Shown: positions 28,430 to 36,216 of the stretch, in pieces
Position numbering within the stretch: the first letter of the stretch is position 1
Layout: the number at the start of each line of letters is the position of its first letter
Source of the DNA: Myxococcus landrumus
Lineage (GTDB): Bacteria; Myxococcota; Myxococcia; Myxococcales; Myxococcaceae
DNA length: 64,000 nucleotides
NCBI RefSeq assembly: GCF_017301635.1
Contig: NZ_CP071091.1
Span: 9,292,501-9,356,500, forward strand
Reading direction: 5' to 3'
Made by a program: the position numbers and the translations under genes
The notes under the pieces: generated by a model
Database searches by the model: none
The model's input: only the letters and a program-made list of their open reading frames with translations
Told to the model about the DNA's origin: nothing

Positions 28430-31400
28430 ATGACGCACCGGATGCACAACGTCGTCACCGAAGGGCGCTCTGCTTCGCCCGAGGATGACTCCGTCCGGGA
28501 GCTTCACGTCGAGTACGACGACGCACCTCCTCCCTCGCCCGCGCGGGCTCCCGCGCCGACCCCGGAGGACCTTCCGCGCTCGCCCAACCCGCTGCTGGCG
28601 CTGTCCCGCGCTCGCGGCCGGGGCGCGAAACCTCCTCCTCCCCCGGAGGCGGCTCCGGTGGCCCGGGACGTGGCGGCGCCCGGCGATGTCTCCACGGCCG
28701 AGCGTCAGGCGATGCAGGCCGCCGTCGCCACCGGCAAGCGCCGCGAGGCCTGGAAGCCTCCCGCCTATCTCCCGGAAGACCTGAGCGAAGCCCTCCTGTC
28801 CGAGCGCAGTCAGTACCGCGCCAAGCTGCTGCAGGACGCGCGACAGGTCAGTCTTCAGGGGCCCGGTGTCATCTCCCTGGTCCCCGTGCCCGCCGCCGAC
28901 CCGGATTGGTCCGGGGGCTCGCTCCTGGGCTTCCTGGGCGAGGAATGTGTCTTCGGCGGCGACGTCGTCCACCTCGACTTCGAGTCCGGCCGCGTCTTCG
29001 CCGCCCCCGACCATGGCGATGACGTGGACCGCCGCGCGCTCTCCGCCGACCGCTGGTGCTATCGGCCCTACGACTTCGCCGAGGCCCTCTGCACCGCCGC
29101 CTCCGCCTACGAGGAACGCCAGCCCGCGCTCGCCCAGGCCCTGCGCCGCGCCAGTGGAGAAGAGCCCGCCGCCGTGGTGCGCCCCCAGGACGCGGAGCTG
29201 TCTCCCACCGACCGGCTCTGGGCCCAACCCTGGGGCTGCATCTGGGGTCCGCCCGGTACAGGCAAGACGACCGCCGTCGCCGACCTCATCGCCCGGGCCC
29301 TGCGCGCCTTCCCGGGCGAGCGCATCCTCGCGGTGGCGCCCACCAACCGCGCGGCGGATGAGCTGGTGTTGCGCGTCAGCGCGCTGCTCGAGCGCGAGCC
29401 CATTCCGCTTCGCCCCCTGGCCCGCAGCATCTTCCGGGGAGGCACGGGTGCCAGTGACGCACTGGCGAAGCTGCCCACTGTCACCCTGGAGGACACCAAG
29501 GGCGGCAAGCTGCGCGCGAGCATCGAGGAGCGCGAGCGCGAGCTGTACCTCCAGCGCGTCCGAGGCGGCCCCGCGCACGAGCTGGCCAAGCTCCAGGCCG
29601 AGCTTCGTGGCCTGCGCGGGAAGATGAAGGACCCCACGCTCAAGGAGGCGGAGAAGGGCGACTGTCCCCTCATGGTGCTCACCGTGCACCGCGCCTTGCG
29701 CCTCGTGTCGGAGCTGGAAGGCAAGAGCACCTTCGCGCGCCTCGTGGTGGACGAGGCCGGCATGGTCACTCGGGCCGCCACCGCGCTGATGGCGCCCCTC
29801 GCGGAGCGGGTGACGCTCGCGGGAGACCCCAAGCAGATTGGTCCCGTGAGCCGCGCCGCCGAGGGCGCTGGCCGTGGCTCGCAGAAGTGGCTGCGCGGCA
29901 GCGGCCTGTCTCATCTGGAAGACGCGGTGAAGGACGCCGCGCGCGCGGACGTGCTGCTGCTGCGCACCCAGCACCGCATGCATCCGGACATCGCCCGCGT
30001 CGTCAGCCACTTCTGCTACGGCGGTGCGCTTCAGGATGGCGACATCGTCAAGGCCCGCGCGCAGAAGGCGCCCCCCGTGCCCGCGTTCGCCGAGACGCGC
30101 GCGGGCTGGGTGGTGCTCGACGGCCTCAGCCGCGAGGCGAAGCGCCTCACCCACGGCCGGGGCGAGACAGGCTCCGGCTATCAGCGCGAGCTGTCCGCCG
30201 AGCTCGCCGTCTCCCTGGCGCGCGAAGCCGTGCGCGCGGGCTTGAGTGTCCTCTGCGTCACGCCGTACCGCGCGCAGGCCGCGCTCCTGCGCAGGCTGGG
30301 GACCTCCGCTGGATTCCGGGGCGATGCGTTCAGCGCCTCCACCATCCATCGCCAGCAGGGCACCCAGTACGACGTCGTGCTCGTGGACACCGTGGCCGGA
30401 GGCCGGCCTTTTCCTCCGCACACGCTGGTGCCCATGCTCAACGTGGCCGCCAGTCGCGCGCGTGACTACCTGCTCGTCCTCGCGTCTCGCGACGAGGCGC
30501 GGGGCGCCACGATTCCCCAGCGCTTCCTCTCGCTCCTGCCGCGTCTGCGCGTCCACCCCGGCTCTCCGCTGCGGCTGGAGGCCATGCCCCTGCCGCAGAA
30601 GCCCGCGCCGCCCCCGCCACCTCCGCCGAGCGCCCCCACCAGCCTGGGCGGAGAAATCGAAGGGGCGCGTCCCACCCGGCCGCTCTTCACCCAGGAGCAG
30701 GTGTCCCTCTTCGAGCGCCGCTTCGACGATGGCCACCACCTGGTGCGCGGTGTCGCCGGCAGCGGCAAGACGTATGTCCTGGCGCACTGGGTGGCGCGCT
30801 ACCTGCTGGAGCACGAGGACACGCGAGTCCTCGTCTCGTTCTACAACCGCGCGCTCGCGCCGCTGGTGGACAAGTTGTTGGTGGAGGCCATCGTCCAGCG
30901 AGCGGGGCGCGAACACGCGCGTGCGCTGCGAGCCCGCGTCACCATCAAGCACGTGGGGGCCCTTCGCCGCGTGGAGCCCGCGTCCTTCGACGGCGTGTTC
31001 GTGGACGAGGCGCAGGACATGGATGCCCTCGCGCTCGCCATGCTCCACGCGCTGGTGCGTCCGCACGTGTCGCAGGACGGTCGGGAGATTCGCTGCCTCC
31101 AGTTGTTCATGGACGACTCGCAGAACGTCTACGGCCAGGTGCCCATCGACGCGCTCAAGGAGCAGCTCCCCGAGGGGCTCTCCTTCCGTGGCCGCACCCG
31201 GGTGTTGAAGGAGACCTTCCGTGCGACGCGAGACATCCTCGACGTCGCCTTCAACGTGGTGCTGGACCCGATGCGCCAGCACGGCACCAGCGACCCCGGC
31301 ATGCGCGAGTACATGAAGGCCGGAGAGCTCGCCCGCGAGGGGCTCCTCTGGCTCCCCGAGGAGACGCTGGAGGGGCTGTATCGCGTGCAGTCCACGGAGC

Positions 31401-31915
31401 GCGCGGGCGTGCTGCCCCAGGTGCGCGGCTTCGCGTCGGGCGCGAGCGAGGCCCGGCAGGTGGCGAAGGAAGTGGCCCGGCTCATCCGCGAGGAGGGCGT
31501 CCACCCCGGAGACATCCTCGTTGTCGCGCCCGTGATGCCGTCGCAGTACACGGACGCGCTCAACCGCGCCGGCGTCCCCGCGCACGCCTATGGAGGGAAG
31601 GGCGGGCGGGATGTGACGGACTTCCGCGTCAGCGGCGTGGACCACGTCCGCGCCACGACGGTCTTCTCGTGCAAGGGGCATGAATGCCCCGTCGTCTTCT
31701 TCGCGGGGTTGGATGCGCTCGACACCGTGGAGAACTGGATGGCCGGCGCGAAGGAGCGCAACGCGCGCGAGAACGAGCGCATCCGCCGCGCCATGTTCTA
31801 CGTGGGAGCCACCCGCGCGATGAAGCGGCAGTACCTCACCGGTGTGAAGGGCGCGCGCTTCCTGCGCGTGGCGGCTTCCTACGTGGAGACCCTCGCCGGA
31901 CTCGTGCCCTCCTGA
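28430..31915 (+). CDS. Double SF1 helicase: Upf1/Dna2-like motor fused to UvrD-like motor
   Basis: A 1161-residue protein with two complete superfamily 1 motors. After a Pro-rich head (1-95), motor 1 has Walker A GPPGTGKTT from 273, Walker B VDEAG (Asp441), a GDPKQIGPV motif III, a QHRMHP motif IV-like stretch and STIHRQQGTQ...NVAASRAR motifs V and VI, an SF1B Upf1/Dna2 pattern. A proline run (KPAPPPPPPP, near 725) separates it from motor 2. Motor 2 has GVAGSGKT from 774, VDEAQD (859-863), VFSCKGHE and YVGATRA, a UvrD/Rep pattern. Both seem catalytically intact. A role in nucleic-acid repair or RNA/DNA processing is inferred. The start may instead be ATG at 28442. Confidence 0.88.
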   Translation: MTHRMHNVVTEGRSASPEDDSVRELHVEYDDAPPPSPARAPAPTPEDLPRSPNPLLALSRARGRGAKPPPPPEAAPVARDVAAPGDVSTAERQAMQAAVATGKRREAWKPPAYLPEDLSEALLSERSQYRAKLLQDARQVSLQGPGVISLVPVPAADPDWSGGSLLGFLGEECVFGGDVVHLDFESGRVFAAPDHGDDVDRRALSADRWCYRPYDFAEALCTAASAYEERQPALAQALRRASGEEPAAVVRPQDAELSPTDRLWAQPWGCIWGPPGTGKTTAVADLIARALRAFPGERILAVAPTNRAADELVLRVSALLEREPIPLRPLARSIFRGGTGASDALAKLPTVTLEDTKGGKLRASIEERERELYLQRVRGGPAHELAKLQAELRGLRGKMKDPTLKEAEKGDCPLMVLTVHRALRLVSELEGKSTFARLVVDEAGMVTRAATALMAPLAERVTLAGDPKQIGPVSRAAEGAGRGSQKWLRGSGLSHLEDAVKDAARADVLLLRTQHRMHPDIARVVSHFCYGGALQDGDIVKARAQKAPPVPAFAETRAGWVVLDGLSREAKRLTHGRGETGSGYQRELSAELAVSLAREAVRAGLSVLCVTPYRAQAALLRRLGTSAGFRGDAFSASTIHRQQGTQYDVVLVDTVAGGRPFPPHTLVPMLNVAASRARDYLLVLASRDEARGATIPQRFLSLLPRLRVHPGSPLRLEAMPLPQKPAPPPPPPPSAPTSLGGEIEGARPTRPLFTQEQVSLFERRFDDGHHLVRGVAGSGKTYVLAHWVARYLLEHEDTRVLVSFYNRALAPLVDKLLVEAIVQRAGREHARALRARVTIKHVGALRRVEPASFDGVFVDEAQDMDALALAMLHALVRPHVSQDGREIRCLQLFMDDSQNVYGQVPIDALKEQLPEGLSFRGRTRVLKETFRATRDILDVAFNVVLDPMRQHGTSDPGMREYMKAGELAREGLLWLPEETLEGLYRVQSTERAGVLPQVRGFASGASEARQVAKEVARLIREEGVHPGDILVVAPVMPSQYTDALNRAGVPAHAYGGKGGRDVTDFRVSGVDHVRATTVFSCKGHECPVVFFAGLDALDTVENWMAGAKERNARENERIRRAMFYVGATRAMKRQYLTGVKGARFLRVAASYVETLAGLVPS

Positions 31916-31980: not shown

Positions 31981-32547
31981 CTACTTCGCCCCGGGCGTCG
32001 GAGCGGGCGCCTGCTGCAGCTTGCGGGTGGTCGGGATGCCCGCCTCCATCGTGGACCAGTAGGTGAGGCCGGCCAGGCGCTTCACCCTGTCGCTCAGGCG
32101 ACGGTGGCCCGTGGGGTCGCCGCCACCGCCGGACGAGCCACCCGGGTCTCCATCGTTGAGGTCGGCCACGTTGATGCAGCCTTCCTTCTCATCCTTGGGG
32201 AAGCAGTCGACGTAGAGCTCCACGTCGCCGACGAGCTTGGCCGGGTCGTTCGGGGGCGCCTGCTGCATGGAGGCGGACGACTCGCTCGTGGCCTCGGTGC
32301 CGGGGGCCTCCAGGGGCCTGCGCGTCGGCGGCGGACGCTGGTTCGACTGGGCGACGATTTCGTCCCGGCTCACATCCACGGTGTAGACGGTGAGGCGCCC
32401 GGGGTTGTCCCGGTCTCGGAGGGTGACGCGCACGAGCGTTCCCTCGGGTGCGCTGCGCTGAATCTGCTGCGTCGAGGGGACCGTGTTGACGTGACGACAC
32501 GCGGCCAGGCTCAGCAGCAATGGAACCAGCAGGAGACTTTTCTTCAT
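31981..32547 (-). CDS. Lipoprotein downstream of the CHAT protein
   Basis: A 188-residue lipoprotein (MKKSLLLVPLLLSLAAC, lipid-modified Cys17). The mature part has a short beta-rich segment (GTLVRVTLRDRDNPGRLTVYTVDVSRDE as two strands), a disordered Pro/Ser/Thr linker, DVELYVDCFPKDEKEGCINVADLND with a probable disulfide, a Gly-rich stretch and a basic C-terminus. No family recognised. It starts 35 bases after the CHAT gene on the same strand with no terminator between, so it is probably the third gene of the sigma-factor operon. It may be a partner, signal sensor or cleavage target of the protease. This is inference from position. Confidence 0.7.
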   Translation of the reverse strand: MKKSLLLVPLLLSLAACRHVNTVPSTQQIQRSAPEGTLVRVTLRDRDNPGRLTVYTVDVSRDEIVAQSNQRPPPTRRPLEAPGTEATSESSASMQQAPPNDPAKLVGDVELYVDCFPKDEKEGCINVADLNDGDPGGSSGGGGDPTGHRRLSDRVKRLAGLTYWSTMEAGIPTTRKLQQAPAPTPGAK

Positions 32548-32582
32548 GGGGCTTGGTGCGCTCTCAGAGGGTGTTGTGACGG

Positions 32583-35525
32583 CTATTCGAAGAGAAGCAC
32601 CTGGCGAACCCAGGGGCTTCCCCGGCTGCGAAGCCAGTCCTGCCGTGCATCGCGAAGGACTCGGGCGGCGGGGAGCCCCTCGCGAATGCGCGCCAGCACC
32701 GGTTCGAAGAAGTCCGACGCCTCGGCATCGGGAATCTCTTGCGTGGCGGCGAGCACCGCTCGCGCGCCGGATTCGACAAAGGCCACGGGAAGCCCGAAGG
32801 TCTCATGGAAGTACGCCTTGCTGTGCGCCGCGTGACACGCCGCCAGGAGCACCACGGGCCTGCCCTGAAGCGGATGCCCCTGGAGGTCCCCGGCCGTCAG
32901 TGCATACCGCCCTCCCTGCTCCTCGGGCGAGAGGACCAGCAGCGAACCGTCCACCACGTTCGGGTCCACCACGCCGTGCGCATGAATCTGAACCTCCGCG
33001 GCGTCGCGCATCGCACGAAGCACCTGGGAGGGCGTCGCGGAGGCCCCCTTCAACAGCGTGAGCCCCGCGCCATCTCCCTGCGCCGGACTCCACGCGCGCA
33101 GCGCCGGAAGCCGCAGCTCCGAGGGCGCATTCACATCGGCCACCACCAGCCGTGGACCTGGCGCGCCCGGCGCCTCCTCCAGCGAGGGGCCCACCTGGTA
33201 CGCCCACGCGATGTCCGAGGGCAACAGTCCCGGCTTGCCCAACACGGGCGGGCGCGCCAGCACGTTCACCGTGACACAGGGCCGCAGGGCCTCGGCCAGC
33301 GCGTCGGGCACCAGGCCCTCCACGCTCTCCAGTCGCTCGCGCCGGTCCGTGTCGTAGTGCCCCAGCAGCTTGCCCTTCGCATCCCGCGCCACCAGCGCCG
33401 TGCGCTCGTCGTCCACCGTCACGCCCAGCACACACTGCTCCGCGCGGGGCAGGCCTCGCTCCTCGGTGAAGAGGGCCAGGGCCCGCTCGAACTCGCCGTG
33501 CCGCGCGGCATCGAGGATGAGCGACGTGAAGCTGTAGACACGCGCCTTGCGCGCGTTGACGTCCGAGCCCAGCAGCGGCGCCGCCTCGTCGATGGCCTGC
33601 CTCAAGAGCGCCTGGCCGCGGTTGCGGTCCTGCTCGACGAAGAAGCGGCCTTCGATGTGGCGCAGCATCGCGCTCTCGCCCGCCGTCTCCAGCCGCGAGG
33701 GCACCGCGCGCAGCGCCTCCAGGCCGCGCGTCAGGACCGCGGTGTCCTCGATGCGGCGCTCCTGGGTATGGGCCAGGTCCGCGATGACGAAGGCACGCGC
33801 CAGCGATGGCGGCTGTCCACACCGCGCCGCGCGGTCCAACTGCTCCCGGGCCCCCGTGAAATCCAGCGTCCGGTAGAAGGCGAGCGCCAGGTTGGCATAG
33901 GCCGACTCATGGTCCTCGCAGCGCTCCGGCAGGCGCTGGATGGTCTCTTCCAGATACGCGCGGGCCAGTGAGACATCGCCATGGAACAGCGCCGCCTGGC
34001 CCAGCTCCTGGAGCAGCCGCCACTCCTTGGTCCACTCCCGGCTGGCGCGGGCCCGCTCCAGCGCCGCCAGCGCATGCGCGCGTGACTCCACGGGGCGGTG
34101 GAGCTGCCGCTCCACCAGCGCCAGGTTCCGCTGAAGCTCCAGGCAACGGTAGTTGAAGCGCGACTCCGGACCGCACCCGCGAAGGGCCTCGGTCAGCCGC
34201 GTCCGCGCCCGAGGCGTCTGTCCGCGTTGGATGTCCGCCCGGGCCTGCCGCTCCTCCGCCAGCAGCGCGAACCACGGGTCCTTCGTGCCCAGCGCGAGCG
34301 AGCGGTACTCCTCCTCGAACTGGCGCGAGTCCCTCAAGAACAGCAGCGTGCCGAGCAGCAGGTCCTGATGCCGGGCCTCGCGCAGCTTCACAATCAACGC
34401 GTCCAGCGCCGGGGGAGGCAGCTCACCTCGCGTCAGCCGCACATAGTCCGCGGCGAAAGGCTTGCGCGCGCCCAGGTCCGCCCGCGAGATGCGCTGGAGC
34501 GCCTCATCGAGATGCGAACCACCGTCCACCGCGTCCAACTGCCGGGCCAGGGGCCTCAGCGCGTCCACGCGTTCGGTGGAGGTGGCCGCGCGCAGGGCAT
34601 CGTAGAAACACAGACGGGACAGGCCCGGGTGCCGCGCCGCCAGTCCCTGCGAGAGAGGCGCGCCCCCCGCCACCATGCGGTCGCACGCCTCCTTCGCGCC
34701 CTTCCACTCCTTGCGCTTCTCCTGCTCCTGGTGCCGTAACTCCGCGGCGCGCCGCGCGGCCTCCTCGCTCCAGCCGGGCTCCTTCAGCGCGGACACGCGC
34801 TCGAACGCCTCCGCCGCTTGCAGCGAGAGCCCCAGCGCCTTCAGCGCCAGCCCCCGATTCCACAGGGCCTGCGGATGCTGGGGCCGCTGCTTCAGCGCGC
34901 GGTCCAGCAGGGTCAGCGCCTGTTCGGGCTCGCCTTGCTGAAGCAGGAGCACCGCCTGGTCCGAGTCCTGGTCCGGCGATGCGGGCAGCCGGTCGAGGAA
35001 CGCTCGCGCCTGGGCCGCGTCTCCCCGCAACAGGTACGCGGACGCGATGCCTCGCTCATCTCCCGCTTCCTCCAGCTTCGCCAGCTCCCGCAGGGACAGC
35101 GCGCGGGGCTTGTCGCCCCCGCTGCGCATCACCTCGTAGGGACGGTGCCGGTCCGCGCTCGGGTACGTCAACCGGGCCTCGAGCGTCCGCCCGGGGGACT
35201 GGCCCAGCCACAGCTCGGAGGAGGCCGGCTCCGAACCTGTCCGCGAGACGAGCACCCACGCCGCCAGGCCCGCGGCCAGCGCCAGCGGCACCACCATCAT
35301 CCAGGTTCTGCGCCGCTTGAGGAGGTGGAGCCGCGCTGGAACGAAGAGCGTCCCGTCACCCGTGGAGTGGAGGGCGTCGTCCGCGAGGAGCGCCAGCGCG
35401 AGCAGTTCCTTCATCCGGGTCTCGCACGCGTGGCAGCGGGTCAGGTGGTGGCGGAAGTTCTCCGCGTCCACCGGTGCCAGCTCCCCGTCGATGAAAGACT
35501 CCAGCCTGCCGCACAACTCGTTCAT
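32583..35525 (-). CDS. Transmembrane anti-sigma factor fused to TPR solenoid and CHAT caspase-like protease
   Basis: A 980-residue chimeric protein. Residues 1-45 are a zinc-finger anti-sigma domain (His27-x3-Cys31-x2-Cys34 after SFIDGELAPVDAENF). Residues 74-94 are one membrane helix preceded by KRRR, so the zinc finger is inside and the rest outside the inner membrane. About 130-650 is a TPR-type helical solenoid (for example LLLQQGEPEQALTLLDRAL). About 700-980 is a CHAT domain with the dyad His850 in IHAHG and Cys897 in LLAACH, both intact. CHAT proteins are caspase/separase-like peptidases. The start codon overlaps the stop of the ECF sigma gene (ATGA). Self-cleavage or substrate cleavage releasing the sigma factor is the likely logic. 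Confidence 0.9.
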   Translation of the reverse strand: MNELCGRLESFIDGELAPVDAENFRHHLTRCHACETRMKELLALALLADDALHSTGDGTLFVPARLHLLKRRRTWMMVVPLALAAGLAAWVLVSRTGSEPASSELWLGQSPGRTLEARLTYPSADRHRPYEVMRSGGDKPRALSLRELAKLEEAGDERGIASAYLLRGDAAQARAFLDRLPASPDQDSDQAVLLLQQGEPEQALTLLDRALKQRPQHPQALWNRGLALKALGLSLQAAEAFERVSALKEPGWSEEAARRAAELRHQEQEKRKEWKGAKEACDRMVAGGAPLSQGLAARHPGLSRLCFYDALRAATSTERVDALRPLARQLDAVDGGSHLDEALQRISRADLGARKPFAADYVRLTRGELPPPALDALIVKLREARHQDLLLGTLLFLRDSRQFEEEYRSLALGTKDPWFALLAEERQARADIQRGQTPRARTRLTEALRGCGPESRFNYRCLELQRNLALVERQLHRPVESRAHALAALERARASREWTKEWRLLQELGQAALFHGDVSLARAYLEETIQRLPERCEDHESAYANLALAFYRTLDFTGAREQLDRAARCGQPPSLARAFVIADLAHTQERRIEDTAVLTRGLEALRAVPSRLETAGESAMLRHIEGRFFVEQDRNRGQALLRQAIDEAAPLLGSDVNARKARVYSFTSLILDAARHGEFERALALFTEERGLPRAEQCVLGVTVDDERTALVARDAKGKLLGHYDTDRRERLESVEGLVPDALAEALRPCVTVNVLARPPVLGKPGLLPSDIAWAYQVGPSLEEAPGAPGPRLVVADVNAPSELRLPALRAWSPAQGDGAGLTLLKGASATPSQVLRAMRDAAEVQIHAHGVVDPNVVDGSLLVLSPEEQGGRYALTAGDLQGHPLQGRPVVLLAACHAAHSKAYFHETFGLPVAFVESGARAVLAATQEIPDAEASDFFEPVLARIREGLPAARVLRDARQDWLRSRGSPWVRQVLLFE

Positions 35526-36115
35526 GGTCTGGCCCTGCCCTCGCCCGAGGAGGCGCCTCCGGACAGCAACTCCCGCAGCGCCTTGCGCGCCTCACTGAGC
35601 CACCGGCCCACCGTTCCCTCGGGGGCATCCAACTGCTCGGCGATGGCGCGATACCGAAGCCCGGCCACATGGAGCCGGTACGCCTCCCGAATCTGAGGAG
35701 GACGCAGCTGTTCGATGGCGCGCAGGAAGTCCTCGCGGGTCACCTGCTCCCACTGCTCCATGGGTGTGGGCTCTCCAGACACCTCCGGCGTCTGCACGAC
35801 ACGCAGCGACGGAGCGCCCAGGACTTCCGTGCGCCTGCGACGGCAGTGGTCCAGGAAACGGTTGCTCAGTGTGGTGCTCAACCACACGCTCACCGCGCTG
35901 GGGTTCTCCGTCACCAACCGGTCAAAGTTCCGGTAGGCACGCTCCAGCGTCTCCTGCACCAGGTCCTCGGCTTCGATGCCTCCCCCGACACACAAACGCC
36001 GGGCAAGACGCAGCAAGCCCGGCCGTCTCGAGCGGGCGAAAGCATCGAACTGTTGGTGCTGCCCGTCGTCCATCGTGGCGCGAACCCCTGCACCCATCAT
36101 CTCATGTCGTTCCAC
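35522..36115 (-). CDS. ECF-type RNA polymerase sigma factor
   Basis: A sigma-70 family factor of about 197 residues. Region 2 is seen as EAEDLVQETLERAYRNFDRL and region 4 as QIREAYRLHVAGLRYRAIAEQL followed by the recognition helix TVGRWLSEARKAL; region 3 is absent, as in ECF factors. The start may be 36115, 36100, 36097 or 36073, since none has a strong ribosome site. The gene is translationally coupled to the anti-sigma/CHAT protein, its predicted inhibitor. A perfect palindrome GGGAAATTCCC lies at 36149-36159, upstream. It likely drives its own operon and a wider envelope-response regulon. Confidence 0.9.
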   Translation of the reverse strand: MERHEMMGAGVRATMDDGQHQQFDAFARSRRPGLLRLARRLCVGGGIEAEDLVQETLERAYRNFDRLVTENPSAVSVWLSTTLSNRFLDHCRRRRTEVLGAPSLRVVQTPEVSGEPTPMEQWEQVTREDFLRAIEQLRPPQIREAYRLHVAGLRYRAIAEQLDAPEGTVGRWLSEARKALRELLSGGASSGEGRARP

Positions 36116-36148
36116 GCGTGGAGCGCCCCCCTGCCAGCAAACGCCCCC

Positions 36149-36159
36149 GGGAAATTCCC
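36149..36159. promoter_or_regulatory. Palindrome upstream of the ECF sigma operon
   Basis: GGGAAATTCCC is an 11-base perfect palindrome 34 bases before the first possible sigma start. It may be an operator or part of the promoter. No convincing ECF -35/-10 pair could be fixed by eye. Confidence 0.3.
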
Positions 36160-36216
36160 TTCGGTGGGTTTCAGATGTGACGCGCTGCGTTGCGGGCTGG
36201 CCCCCGGCGGCGGGGT

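What the first reader, a model, noticed from the sequence alone, without database searches (positions are those of the whole stretch)
31981..36115. ECF sigma factor paired with a one-protein anti-sigma/membrane/TPR/CHAT caspase-like sensor
The anti-sigma zinc finger, membrane helix, TPR solenoid and CHAT peptidase with an intact His850-Cys897 dyad are in one polypeptide, translationally coupled to its sigma factor and followed by a lipoprotein. Type III-E CRISPR (Craspase) uses a separate TPR-CHAT protease to cleave Csx30 and free an RpoE-type sigma factor. Here the same parts are fused into one membrane protein, with the protease predicted outside the inner membrane. That would be a self-contained envelope-to-transcription proteolytic switch.
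Basis: partly seen in the sequence, partly recalled or inferred. Interest (0 to 1): 0.85.

Follow-up and report, generated by a model that had tools for sequence, protein, structure and literature searches.

The report
Membrane anti-sigma factor with caspase-like domain
A Myxococcus-like genome carries a gene-switching sigma factor paired with a single membrane protein that is predicted both to restrain it and to carry a caspase-like domain outside the inner membrane; the design is already known from the solved protein DdvA, so this is a conserved new member of a known kind, with instructive relatives in which the two halves sit on separate proteins.

Summary
At 31981-36115 (- strand) lie an ECF sigma factor, a 980-aa protein (zinc anti-sigma domain, one membrane helix, TPR solenoid, CHAT domain with His850/Cys897) whose start overlaps the sigma stop by 4 nt, and a lipoprotein gene.

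It is not a new architecture: the protein is homologous end to end to the transmembrane anti-sigma factor DdvA (8rot/8rw5; E 5e-137; VIA Z 35, 811 residues).

It is not DdvA's ortholog. Its group is in 26 of 27 same-genus genomes searched; clear DdvA orthologs are in 7 of 96 family genomes.

New here: the dyad is invariant in 88 of 88 CHAT-bearing relatives examined. A strict promoter motif precedes the sigma gene in 26 of 26 same-genus carriers and is absent from the one genome without the pair. A lipoprotein gene follows in 28 of 28 orthologous loci. In one pair of paralogs, CHAT and anti-sigma domain sit on separate membrane proteins encoded near each other.

Proteolysis, signal and regulon are untested. 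New member of a known kind; moderate interest.

The parts
36139..36163 (-). Predicted autoregulatory ECF promoter of the sigma gene: CGAAGGGA-N12-CGTTT; group consensus CGAAGRGA-N12-CGTTY
   Evidence: Upstream regions of 24 ortholog loci compared by eye; strict motif at this place in 26 of 26 same-genus genomes with the pair, 0 hits in G075, which lacks it. Inferred from conservation, no transcript data.
35522..36115 (-). ECF sigma factor gene (197 aa, GTG start)
   Evidence: Sigma70_r2, Sigma70_r4_2, TIGR02937; phmmer to SigE/SigH/SigW structures
32583..35525 (-). DdvA-type transmembrane anti-sigma factor with TPR-CHAT region (980 aa)
   Evidence: Full-length match to 8rot, E 5e-137; AF2 model to 8rw5 Z 35, 811 aligned, rmsd 4.5
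35424..35504 (-). Zinc-binding anti-sigma domain, residues 8-34 (His27, Cys31, Cys34)
   Evidence: zf-HC2 above cut-off; His27/Cys31/Cys34 in 75 of 88 CHAT-bearing relatives, the other 13 lacking the domain altogether
35241..35303 (-). Single transmembrane helix, about residues 75-95, preceded by KRRR (N terminus predicted cytoplasmic)
   Evidence: Kyte-Doolittle window 2.16
33456..35093 (-). TPR solenoid, about residues 145-690, predicted outside the inner membrane
   Evidence: TPR families; helical repeat in the AF2 model, most 10-residue blocks above pLDDT 80
32586..33431 (-). C-terminal alpha/beta region with CHAT domain, residues about 699-980; Pfam CHAT 820-967
   Evidence: PF12770 2.9e-16; model confidence low here (residues 882-933 under 50)
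32976..32978 (-). Codon of His850 (H-x-H-G motif)
   Evidence: His in 88 of 88 CHAT-bearing relatives
32835..32837 (-). Codon of Cys897 (L-A-A-C motif)
   Evidence: Cys in 88 of 88 CHAT-bearing relatives
31981..32547 (-). Lipoprotein gene (188 aa, lipobox LAAC), third gene of the presumed operon
   Evidence: No Pfam or NCBIfam match up to E 1; a lipoprotein gene 26-36 nt downstream in 28 of 28 loci of the group, fast-evolving (97% down to 27% identity, or undetected by tblastn)

Best explanation
A sigma/anti-sigma pair of the DdvS/DdvA kind. The sigma factor drives its own operon from a dedicated promoter. The 980-aa protein holds it at the inner membrane through its N-terminal zinc domain; the TPR-CHAT region lies in the periplasm as sensor and switch. 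When an envelope signal, perhaps carried by the co-encoded lipoprotein, engages the TPR solenoid, the CHAT dyad is activated and cuts the anti-sigma protein (most likely its partner in a dimer), opening it to intramembrane proteolysis and freeing sigma. Shown by sequence and comparison: identity of the parts, gene overlap, full-length homology to the DdvA structures, invariant dyad and zinc residues, conserved promoter motif and lipoprotein gene. Inferred: sigma binding, topology, signal, CHAT cleavage, site-2 cleavage. I put the identification as a DdvA-type anti-sigma/sigma pair at about 0.93, and the CHAT-proteolysis step at about 0.5.
For: End-to-end homology to DdvA. In M. xanthus DdvS becomes active when DdvA is inactivated, signal unknown (passages of PMC4374960). 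An ECF sigma gene abuts 104 of 104 family proteins with an anti-sigma domain and 0 of 13 without it. Dyad invariant in 88 of 88 CHAT-bearing relatives when only 38 of 880 columns beyond residue 100 are invariant. dN/dS of the CHAT part 0.10-0.19 in four pairs. Cys451, Cys461, Cys698 and Cys750 are also invariant, 88 of 88, as disulfides of an exported domain would be (inference). Promoter motif in 26 of 26 same-genus carriers, 0 in the non-carrier. In Craspase a TPR-CHAT protease with a His/Cys dyad cleaves Csx30, an inhibitor of a sigma factor (passages of PMC10028731).
Against: I know of no cleavage product or activity for this group. Pfam matches only part of the CHAT profile (120-269 of 289), and I recall that the DdvA active site is called incomplete. 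Some anti-sigma paralogs have no CHAT, so CHAT is not needed for an anti-sigma protein of this family to persist. One relative (L086, genome G079) ends before Cys897. The AF2 model is poor around the active site. No promoter target besides the operon itself could be found.
Confidence: 0.55

Rival explanations
1. DdvA-type anti-sigma factor in which CHAT is a silent sensor or scaffold: the dyad residues are kept for structure, and release of sigma comes from ordinary regulated intramembrane proteolysis started by a separate site-1 protease (as DegS/RseP on RseA) or by an allosteric change without cleavage.
For: Only part of the CHAT profile matches; CHAT-less anti-sigma paralogs persist; the active site of DdvA is incomplete as I recall it.
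Against: Both catalytic residues invariant in 88 of 88 relatives, while the first His of the HxHG motif (H848) is in 70 of 88.
Confidence: 0.33
2. CHAT cleaves something other than the anti-sigma protein, such as the co-encoded lipoprotein or an invader protein, and the sigma arm only reports on or autoregulates the operon.
For: Lipoprotein gene next door in 28 of 28 loci of the group and after 4 of 13 TPR-CHAT genes that lack the anti-sigma domain (L094, L097, L112, L125); no second promoter site found for the sigma factor; TPR-CHAT proteins without any anti-sigma domain exist (13 of 88).
Against: The zinc anti-sigma domain and the sigma gene stay with CHAT in 28 of 28 loci of this group; the lipoprotein sequence is poorly conserved.
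Confidence: 0.1
3. Assembly or gene-calling artefact: zinc finger and CHAT are separate genes joined by error.
For: None found.
Against: Same fusion in 28 orthologous loci and in the DdvA chain of 8rot.
Confidence: 0.01

Closest known systems
DdvA/DdvS of Myxococcus xanthus (PDB 8rot, 8rw5, 8rlz; Bernal-Bernal 2018 and 2024, papers not held)
   Same: Zinc anti-sigma domain, one membrane helix, TPR solenoid, CHAT with His and Cys, ECF sigma gene upstream.
   Different: Another orthologous group: holding the two groups together as one clade is rejected (p-AU 0.0018); 37-39% identity; nearly genus-wide instead of patchy; a lipoprotein gene next to it, and no defence island among the genes scanned, whereas DdvS controls a CBASS/CRISPR island (passages of PMC12288465); upstream sequence of the sigma gene looks different (by eye).
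Type III-E CRISPR Craspase (gRAMP/Cas7-11, Csx29 TPR-CHAT, Csx30, CASP-sigma)
   Same: TPR-CHAT with a His/Cys dyad, and an inhibitor of a sigma factor as the presumed substrate; weak fold match 7y85 Z 12.0.
   Different: There protease, inhibitor and sigma are separate proteins and the trigger is target RNA; here the inhibitor and CHAT are one membrane protein.
ECF54 sigma factors with CHAT, subtilase or carboxypeptidase genes nearby
   Same: A review notes proteins with these domains in the genetic context of ECF54 and proposes control by proteolysis (passages of PMC8999054).
   Different: That proposal is for sigma factors without an anti-sigma factor; here CHAT is fused to one. I did not assign the window sigma factor to an ECF group.
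RseA/RsiW-type zinc membrane anti-sigma factors with DegS/RseP-like release (mechanism recalled)
   Same: Cytoplasmic zinc domain, membrane helix, extracytoplasmic sensor (weak RsiW match 5wuq, E 0.58).
   Different: The extracytoplasmic part is a roughly 880-residue TPR-CHAT region that may itself be the first protease.
Paralogs in the same genome: L002, L003 (full architecture), L004 and L005 (no anti-sigma domain), L006 (no CHAT)
   Same: 40-46% identical, same domain order.
   Different: Parts split over proteins in L004/L006; upstream sequences of the sigma genes look different (by eye).

Membership tests
DdvA-type transmembrane anti-sigma factors | N-terminal zinc anti-sigma domain with HxxxCxxC | tested here: met
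   zf-HC2 above cut-off; motif in 28 of 28 orthologous loci
DdvA-type transmembrane anti-sigma factors | One membrane helix followed by an extracytoplasmic TPR-CHAT region of the DdvA fold | tested here: met
   Hydropathy; Z 35, 811 aligned, rmsd 4.5 to 8rw5; topology itself inferred
DdvA-type transmembrane anti-sigma factors | Cognate ECF sigma gene directly upstream | tested here: met
   4-nt overlap, 28 of 28 orthologous loci
DdvA-type transmembrane anti-sigma factors | His/Cys CHAT dyad | tested here: met
   H850, C897; 88 of 88 relatives
DdvA-type transmembrane anti-sigma factors | Binds and inhibits its sigma; forms dimers | not testable with these tools
   Needs binding assays and structures
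DdvA ortholog proper | Same orthologous group as M. xanthus DdvA | tested here: not met
   8rot scores 461, 441, 458 and 405 bits against P0001 and three paralogs of the genome, so it is about as far from each; one clade rejected, p-AU 0.0018; genome G076 holds both DdvA (100%) and the window ortholog (62%)
DdvA ortholog proper | Sits in a CBASS/CRISPR defence island | tested here: not met
   26 window proteins scanned with PADLOC, most genes of 17.7-53.5 kb: matches for 3 only, a helicase, a response regulator and an ABC-type ATPase, those shown being to parts of models; no direct repeats of 22 nt or more within 200 nt in the window, so no CRISPR array seen. Control of a distant island is not testable here.
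Type III-E Craspase | Separate Csx29 protease, Csx30, sigma and Cas7-11 in one locus | tested here: not met
   CHAT and anti-sigma domain are one chain; no Cas7-11, Csx29 or Csx30 match among 26 proteins scanned with PADLOC (of the helicase's 35 matches 25 were shown)
CHAT peptidases (PF12770) | Complete CHAT fold | tested here: inconclusive
   Profile positions 120-269 of 289 only; model confidence low there
CHAT peptidases (PF12770) | Peptidase activity | not testable with these tools
   Needs an assay

The most novel reading that the evidence does not exclude
CHAT in this family acts in trans on anti-sigma chains, and myxobacteria have split the fused DdvA-type protein into a two-part switch. 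In the window's own genome a CHAT-less anti-sigma protein (zinc domain, membrane helix, TPR; 478 aa, with its own sigma gene) is encoded about 2 kb from a membrane TPR-CHAT protein without anti-sigma domain, with a Cupin_8/JmjC-type gene between them on the other strand. The two would form a mixed dimer in which one subunit is protease and the other is substrate and sigma trap; the window's fused protein would be the homodimeric form. This would give a direct genetic test of trans-cleavage in DdvA-type switches.
Probability: 0.25. Interest if true: 0.65.

Novelty: new member of a known kind. Interest (0 to 1): 0.4.

Why it matters
The signal and the release step of DdvA-type anti-sigma factors are open as far as I could see (the signal was unknown in PMC4374960, passages). 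This orthologous group is close to universal in its genus and carries its own promoter motif and lipoprotein partner, so it is a second, genetically stable case in which to test whether the CHAT dyad is needed. The split paralogs make cis versus trans action testable by deleting one gene. If CHAT does cut the anti-sigma chain, a caspase/separase-like protease would be a built-in site-1 protease of envelope signalling.

Tried and rejected
Orthology with DdvA: considered first, rejected. A defence island around the pair, as for DdvA: not seen. Regulon by promoter motif: the strict motif CGAAGRGA-N12-CGTTY gives 44 sites in 27 genomes, 26 of them the sigma promoter; the other 18 compare with 11 for the reversed control, so I name no second target. 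With one mismatch allowed (CGAAGGGA-N12-CGTTY): 26 sites against 19 control in the window's genome, 21 against 22 in G071.

A rule 'CHAT-less anti-sigma genes always neighbour a TPR-CHAT gene without anti-sigma domain' looked perfect at first and was rejected. Linked: 27 of 27 same-genus genomes (in one, G068, the CHAT-less gene is in two pieces); genus g5, 2 of 2; genus g6, 13 of 16 on one contig within about 5 kb, 3 of 16 (G019, G021, G027; drafts) with no such gene on that contig in the listing; G033 and G034 as divergent neighbours; G006 about 3.4 kb away, divergent; G041:C70 about 11 kb away. Not linked in the listings: a second short class in 14 of 16 g6 genomes (match 9-275; frames of 282-290 aa in 10 of 14), and G041:C258, G043:C2, G042:C68, G040:C19 (open frames of 548-750 aa, not read). 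Six TPR-CHAT genes without anti-sigma domain are solitary within the stretches read (L011, L218, L219, L220, L222, L223). G033, G034 and G006 were first found by looking near such genes, so they are not unbiased cases.

In some searches the G033/G034 CHAT-less proteins were cut by the locus end; longer stretches showed real stops, so the classification stood. The tree used only the shared TPR columns. The two CHAT-less groups in that tree are not one clade (p-AU 0.0002), which suggests two losses; the groups were named after seeing the tree, and the g5, g6, G006 and G040-G043 CHAT-less genes were not in it.

Rows dropped: identical proteins were removed before the 119; on recount two of the 119 (L085, L087) proved to be edge-cut copies of L022 and of a gene in L102, so the counts here use 117 proteins, 88 with CHAT; still show 119, 90 and 29. 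38 near-identical or edge-cut rows were left out of the 81-row tree. The 117 are a part of what searches listed. The 29 'CHAT-less' rows include L086, a full-type gene that ends early. Counts of 28 use L001 and L012-L038 only, since later loci repeat some of these genomes.

AlphaFold model of the active site: too poor to judge dyad geometry. VIA list: only DdvA stands clear; Craspase Z 12.0 is tied with TPR proteins. Separase was not among the rows shown, which says nothing either way.

Papers: the DdvA papers (gky475, sciadv.adp1053, PMC6061681) are not held. I saw the 2018 title in reference lists of PMC11237760 and PMC12288465 and the 2024 title in that of PMC12288465; what I say of their content beyond that (incomplete active site, dimer, autoproteolysis in trans, RseP) is recalled, not read. 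Of PMC4374960, PMC11237760, PMC8999054, PMC12288465 and PMC10028731 I saw passages only. Listings of the other searches showed me no further paper on CHAT-bearing anti-sigma factors; I did not search for the split forms by name, and this library lacks most subscription papers.

Full report
WHAT IS THERE. On the - strand, 36115 to 31981, lie an ECF sigma factor (197 aa), a 980-aa protein whose ATG overlaps the sigma stop codon by 4 nt, and a 188-aa lipoprotein. The 980-aa protein has, in order, a zinc anti-sigma domain (zf-HC2, residues 8-34), a hydrophobic helix at about 75-95 preceded by KRRR, TPR repeats, and a CHAT domain (820-967, E 2.9e-16) with His850 and Cys897. Pfam's CHAT profile is matched only from position 120 to 269 of 289.

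IT IS A KNOWN ARCHITECTURE. A phmmer search of solved structures aligns the protein from residue 4 to 980 with 8rot chain B at 5e-137, and residues 4-52 with 8rlz, 'Antisigma factor DdvA'. An AlphaFold2 model from 13 sequences (mean pLDDT 70, good in the TPR part, under 50 at 882-933) finds 8rw5 and 8rot, 'transmembrane anti-sigma factor DdvA', first by Foldseek (1e-40) and by VIA-align (Z 35.0, 811 aligned, rmsd 4.5). The Craspase TPR-CHAT protease 7y85 follows at Z 12.0 with 436 aligned and rmsd 9.2, level with ordinary TPR proteins. [quoted passage not shown] The 2024 structural paper is listed there by title; it is not held. I recall from its abstract that the DdvA CHAT active site is called incomplete, that the dimer places the sites at its interface, and that autoproteolysis in trans before RseP cleavage is raised as a possibility. 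That is recall, not a tool result.

IT IS NOT DDVA. DdvA scores 461 bits against P0001 and 441, 458 and 405 against three paralogs in the same genome, so none stands out as its ortholog. The DdvA sequence searched in 96 family genomes has clear orthologs (53-100% identity) in 7: G076, G003, G022, G019, G036, G027, G032; the next best matches are at 42-43%. The window protein has orthologs (59-97%) in 26 of 27 same-genus genomes, own genome included, and at 60-61% in two genomes of a sister genus (g5); of the genus only G075 lacks it. Named records include M. xanthus AM003 (61%). G076 carries both proteins. A tree of 81 family members on the TPR columns puts the two in separate groups, and holding them together is rejected (p-AU 0.0018).

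WHAT IS CONSERVED. In 28 of 28 orthologous loci (L001, L012-L038) the fusion, the zinc ligands, the dyad and the 4-nt overlap with the sigma gene are kept. Of 117 family proteins that are neither identical nor contained in one another, 88 carry the full CHAT region; His850 and Cys897 are present in 88 of 88, whereas the first histidine of HxHG (H848) is in 70 of 88, and 38 of 880 columns beyond residue 100 are invariant. Four other cysteines (451, 461, 698, 750) are invariant too; disulfides in the periplasm would explain that, by inference. An ECF sigma gene abuts 104 of 104 members with an anti-sigma domain (overlap up to 8 nt, gap up to 14 nt) and 0 of 13 without it, although in L091 and L092 the sigma gene of the divergent neighbour falls within the 2.5 kb read. 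dN/dS of four ortholog pairs is 0.08-0.24 overall and 0.10-0.19 in the CHAT part. One relative, L086, ends before the catalytic cysteine.

PROMOTER AND OPERON. Upstream regions of 24 orthologs share CGAAGRGA, a 12-nt spacer and CGTTY, in the window 23 nt before the sigma GTG. The strict motif occurs there in 26 of 26 same-genus genomes that have the pair, and nowhere in G075, which has none. The remaining 18 sites in 27 genomes compare with 11 for the reversed control, and searches with one mismatch in two genomes show no clear excess (26 against 19; 21 against 22). So autoregulation is well supported and no other target can be named. Upstream regions of the paralogs and of DdvS show other sequences by eye, which suggests separate promoter specificities. 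A lipoprotein gene starts 26-36 nt after the anti-sigma stop in 28 of 28 loci (26 by a lipobox scan; the other two by reading the translation), though its sequence drifts fast. The flanks (response regulator, histidine kinase, P450 and alanyl-tRNA-synthetase-like editing genes on one side; a helicase and a YgiQ-type radical SAM gene on the other) recur in many of the orthologous loci. Of 26 window proteins scanned with PADLOC, 3 have matches (the helicase, a response regulator, an ABC-type ATPase), those shown being to parts of models, and no CRISPR-like repeats were found: no sign of a defence island.

PARALOGS THAT SPLIT THE PARTS. The genome has five relatives: two of full architecture (L002, L003), two TM-TPR-CHAT proteins without an anti-sigma domain (L004, L005), and one anti-sigma protein that ends after the TPR part (L006, 478 aa, with its sigma gene). 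L004 and L006 are on one strand about 2 kb apart, with a Cupin_8 gene on the other strand between them. Orthologs of L006 end at the same place in 26 of 27 same-genus genomes (in the 27th, G068, the gene is in two pieces), and a TPR-CHAT gene whose match starts after the anti-sigma domain lies about 5 kb upstream, start to start, on the same strand in 27 of 27. The linkage continues in two sister genera (2 of 2; 13 of 16 on one contig), where the match to the anti-sigma protein is shorter still. A second arrangement, the two genes divergent, is in G033 and G034. The rule is not universal: other CHAT-less anti-sigma genes have no such neighbour in the listings, and six TPR-CHAT genes without anti-sigma domain are solitary in the stretches read. 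CHAT-less L006-type proteins are under purifying selection (dN/dS 0.21-0.48 in five pairs), so they are not plain decay.

HOW IT MOST LIKELY WORKS. Sigma is held at the membrane by residues 1 to about 70 (inferred from family and DdvA). The TPR-CHAT region outside the membrane takes the signal; the invariant dyad argues that it cuts something, and the anti-sigma chain is the most economical substrate, by analogy with Craspase, where TPR-CHAT Csx29 cleaves the sigma inhibitor Csx30 in a dyad-dependent way (passages of PMC10028731). A mixed-dimer reading of the split pair fits trans action. Against this stand the partial CHAT match, the existence of CHAT-less anti-sigma proteins, and the lack of any activity data. 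I put the DdvA-type identification at about 0.93 and the CHAT-cleavage step at about 0.5.

VERDICT. Observation confirmed; interpretation right on parts, wrong on novelty, unproven on mechanism. New member of a known kind: a nearly genus-wide orthologous group separate from DdvA, with its own promoter motif and lipoprotein partner. Interest 0.4; the split-pair reading (probability 0.25) would deserve 0.65.

Noticed in passing
L009 7796-9792 (-) and 11298-14048 (-); L101, L128: Split paralogs: CHAT-less anti-sigma protein with sigma gene, and a TM-TPR-CHAT gene without anti-sigma domain about 2 kb away; linked in 27 of 27 same-genus genomes.
   Followed up: partly
L009 10285-11295 (+); L011 11726-12781 and 13025-14062 (-); L126 5334-6278 and 6321-7370 (-): Genes with a similar N-terminal region (seen by eye) sit beside three TPR-CHAT genes without anti-sigma domain (L004, L005, L126), one or two copies each; the two tested are Cupin_8/JmjC-like. 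No explanation.
   Followed up: partly
G018:C1:2980532-2981341 (+) and 13 other g6 genomes: A second class of short CHAT-less anti-sigma proteins (frames of 282-290 aa in 10 of 14), in several genomes with another zinc-domain ORF of about 307 aa some 500-650 bp before it; no TPR-CHAT gene nearby in the listing.
   Followed up: no
L086 (G079:C5:948990-951677): A full-type relative that ends before the catalytic cysteine (895 aa): a natural dyad loss or an assembly error.
   Followed up: no
L094, L097, L112, L125 (3' flanks): Four TM-TPR-CHAT genes without anti-sigma domain are also followed by a lipoprotein gene 40-43 nt downstream, so lipoprotein linkage occurs outside the window's group.
   Followed up: partly
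window 28433-31915 (+): Large helicase with several SF1-type domains, convergent with the operon and conserved beside it in most orthologous loci; it matches parts of defence helicases in PADLOC (MkoA 149 bits) but looks like a core gene.
   Followed up: partly
window 36111-36122 (-), around the sigma start codon: Palindrome around the GTG start (TCCACGCGTGGA, TCCACCGGTGGA, TCCAAGCTTGGA in different orthologs): the centre changes while symmetry is mostly kept (seen by eye).
   Followed up: no
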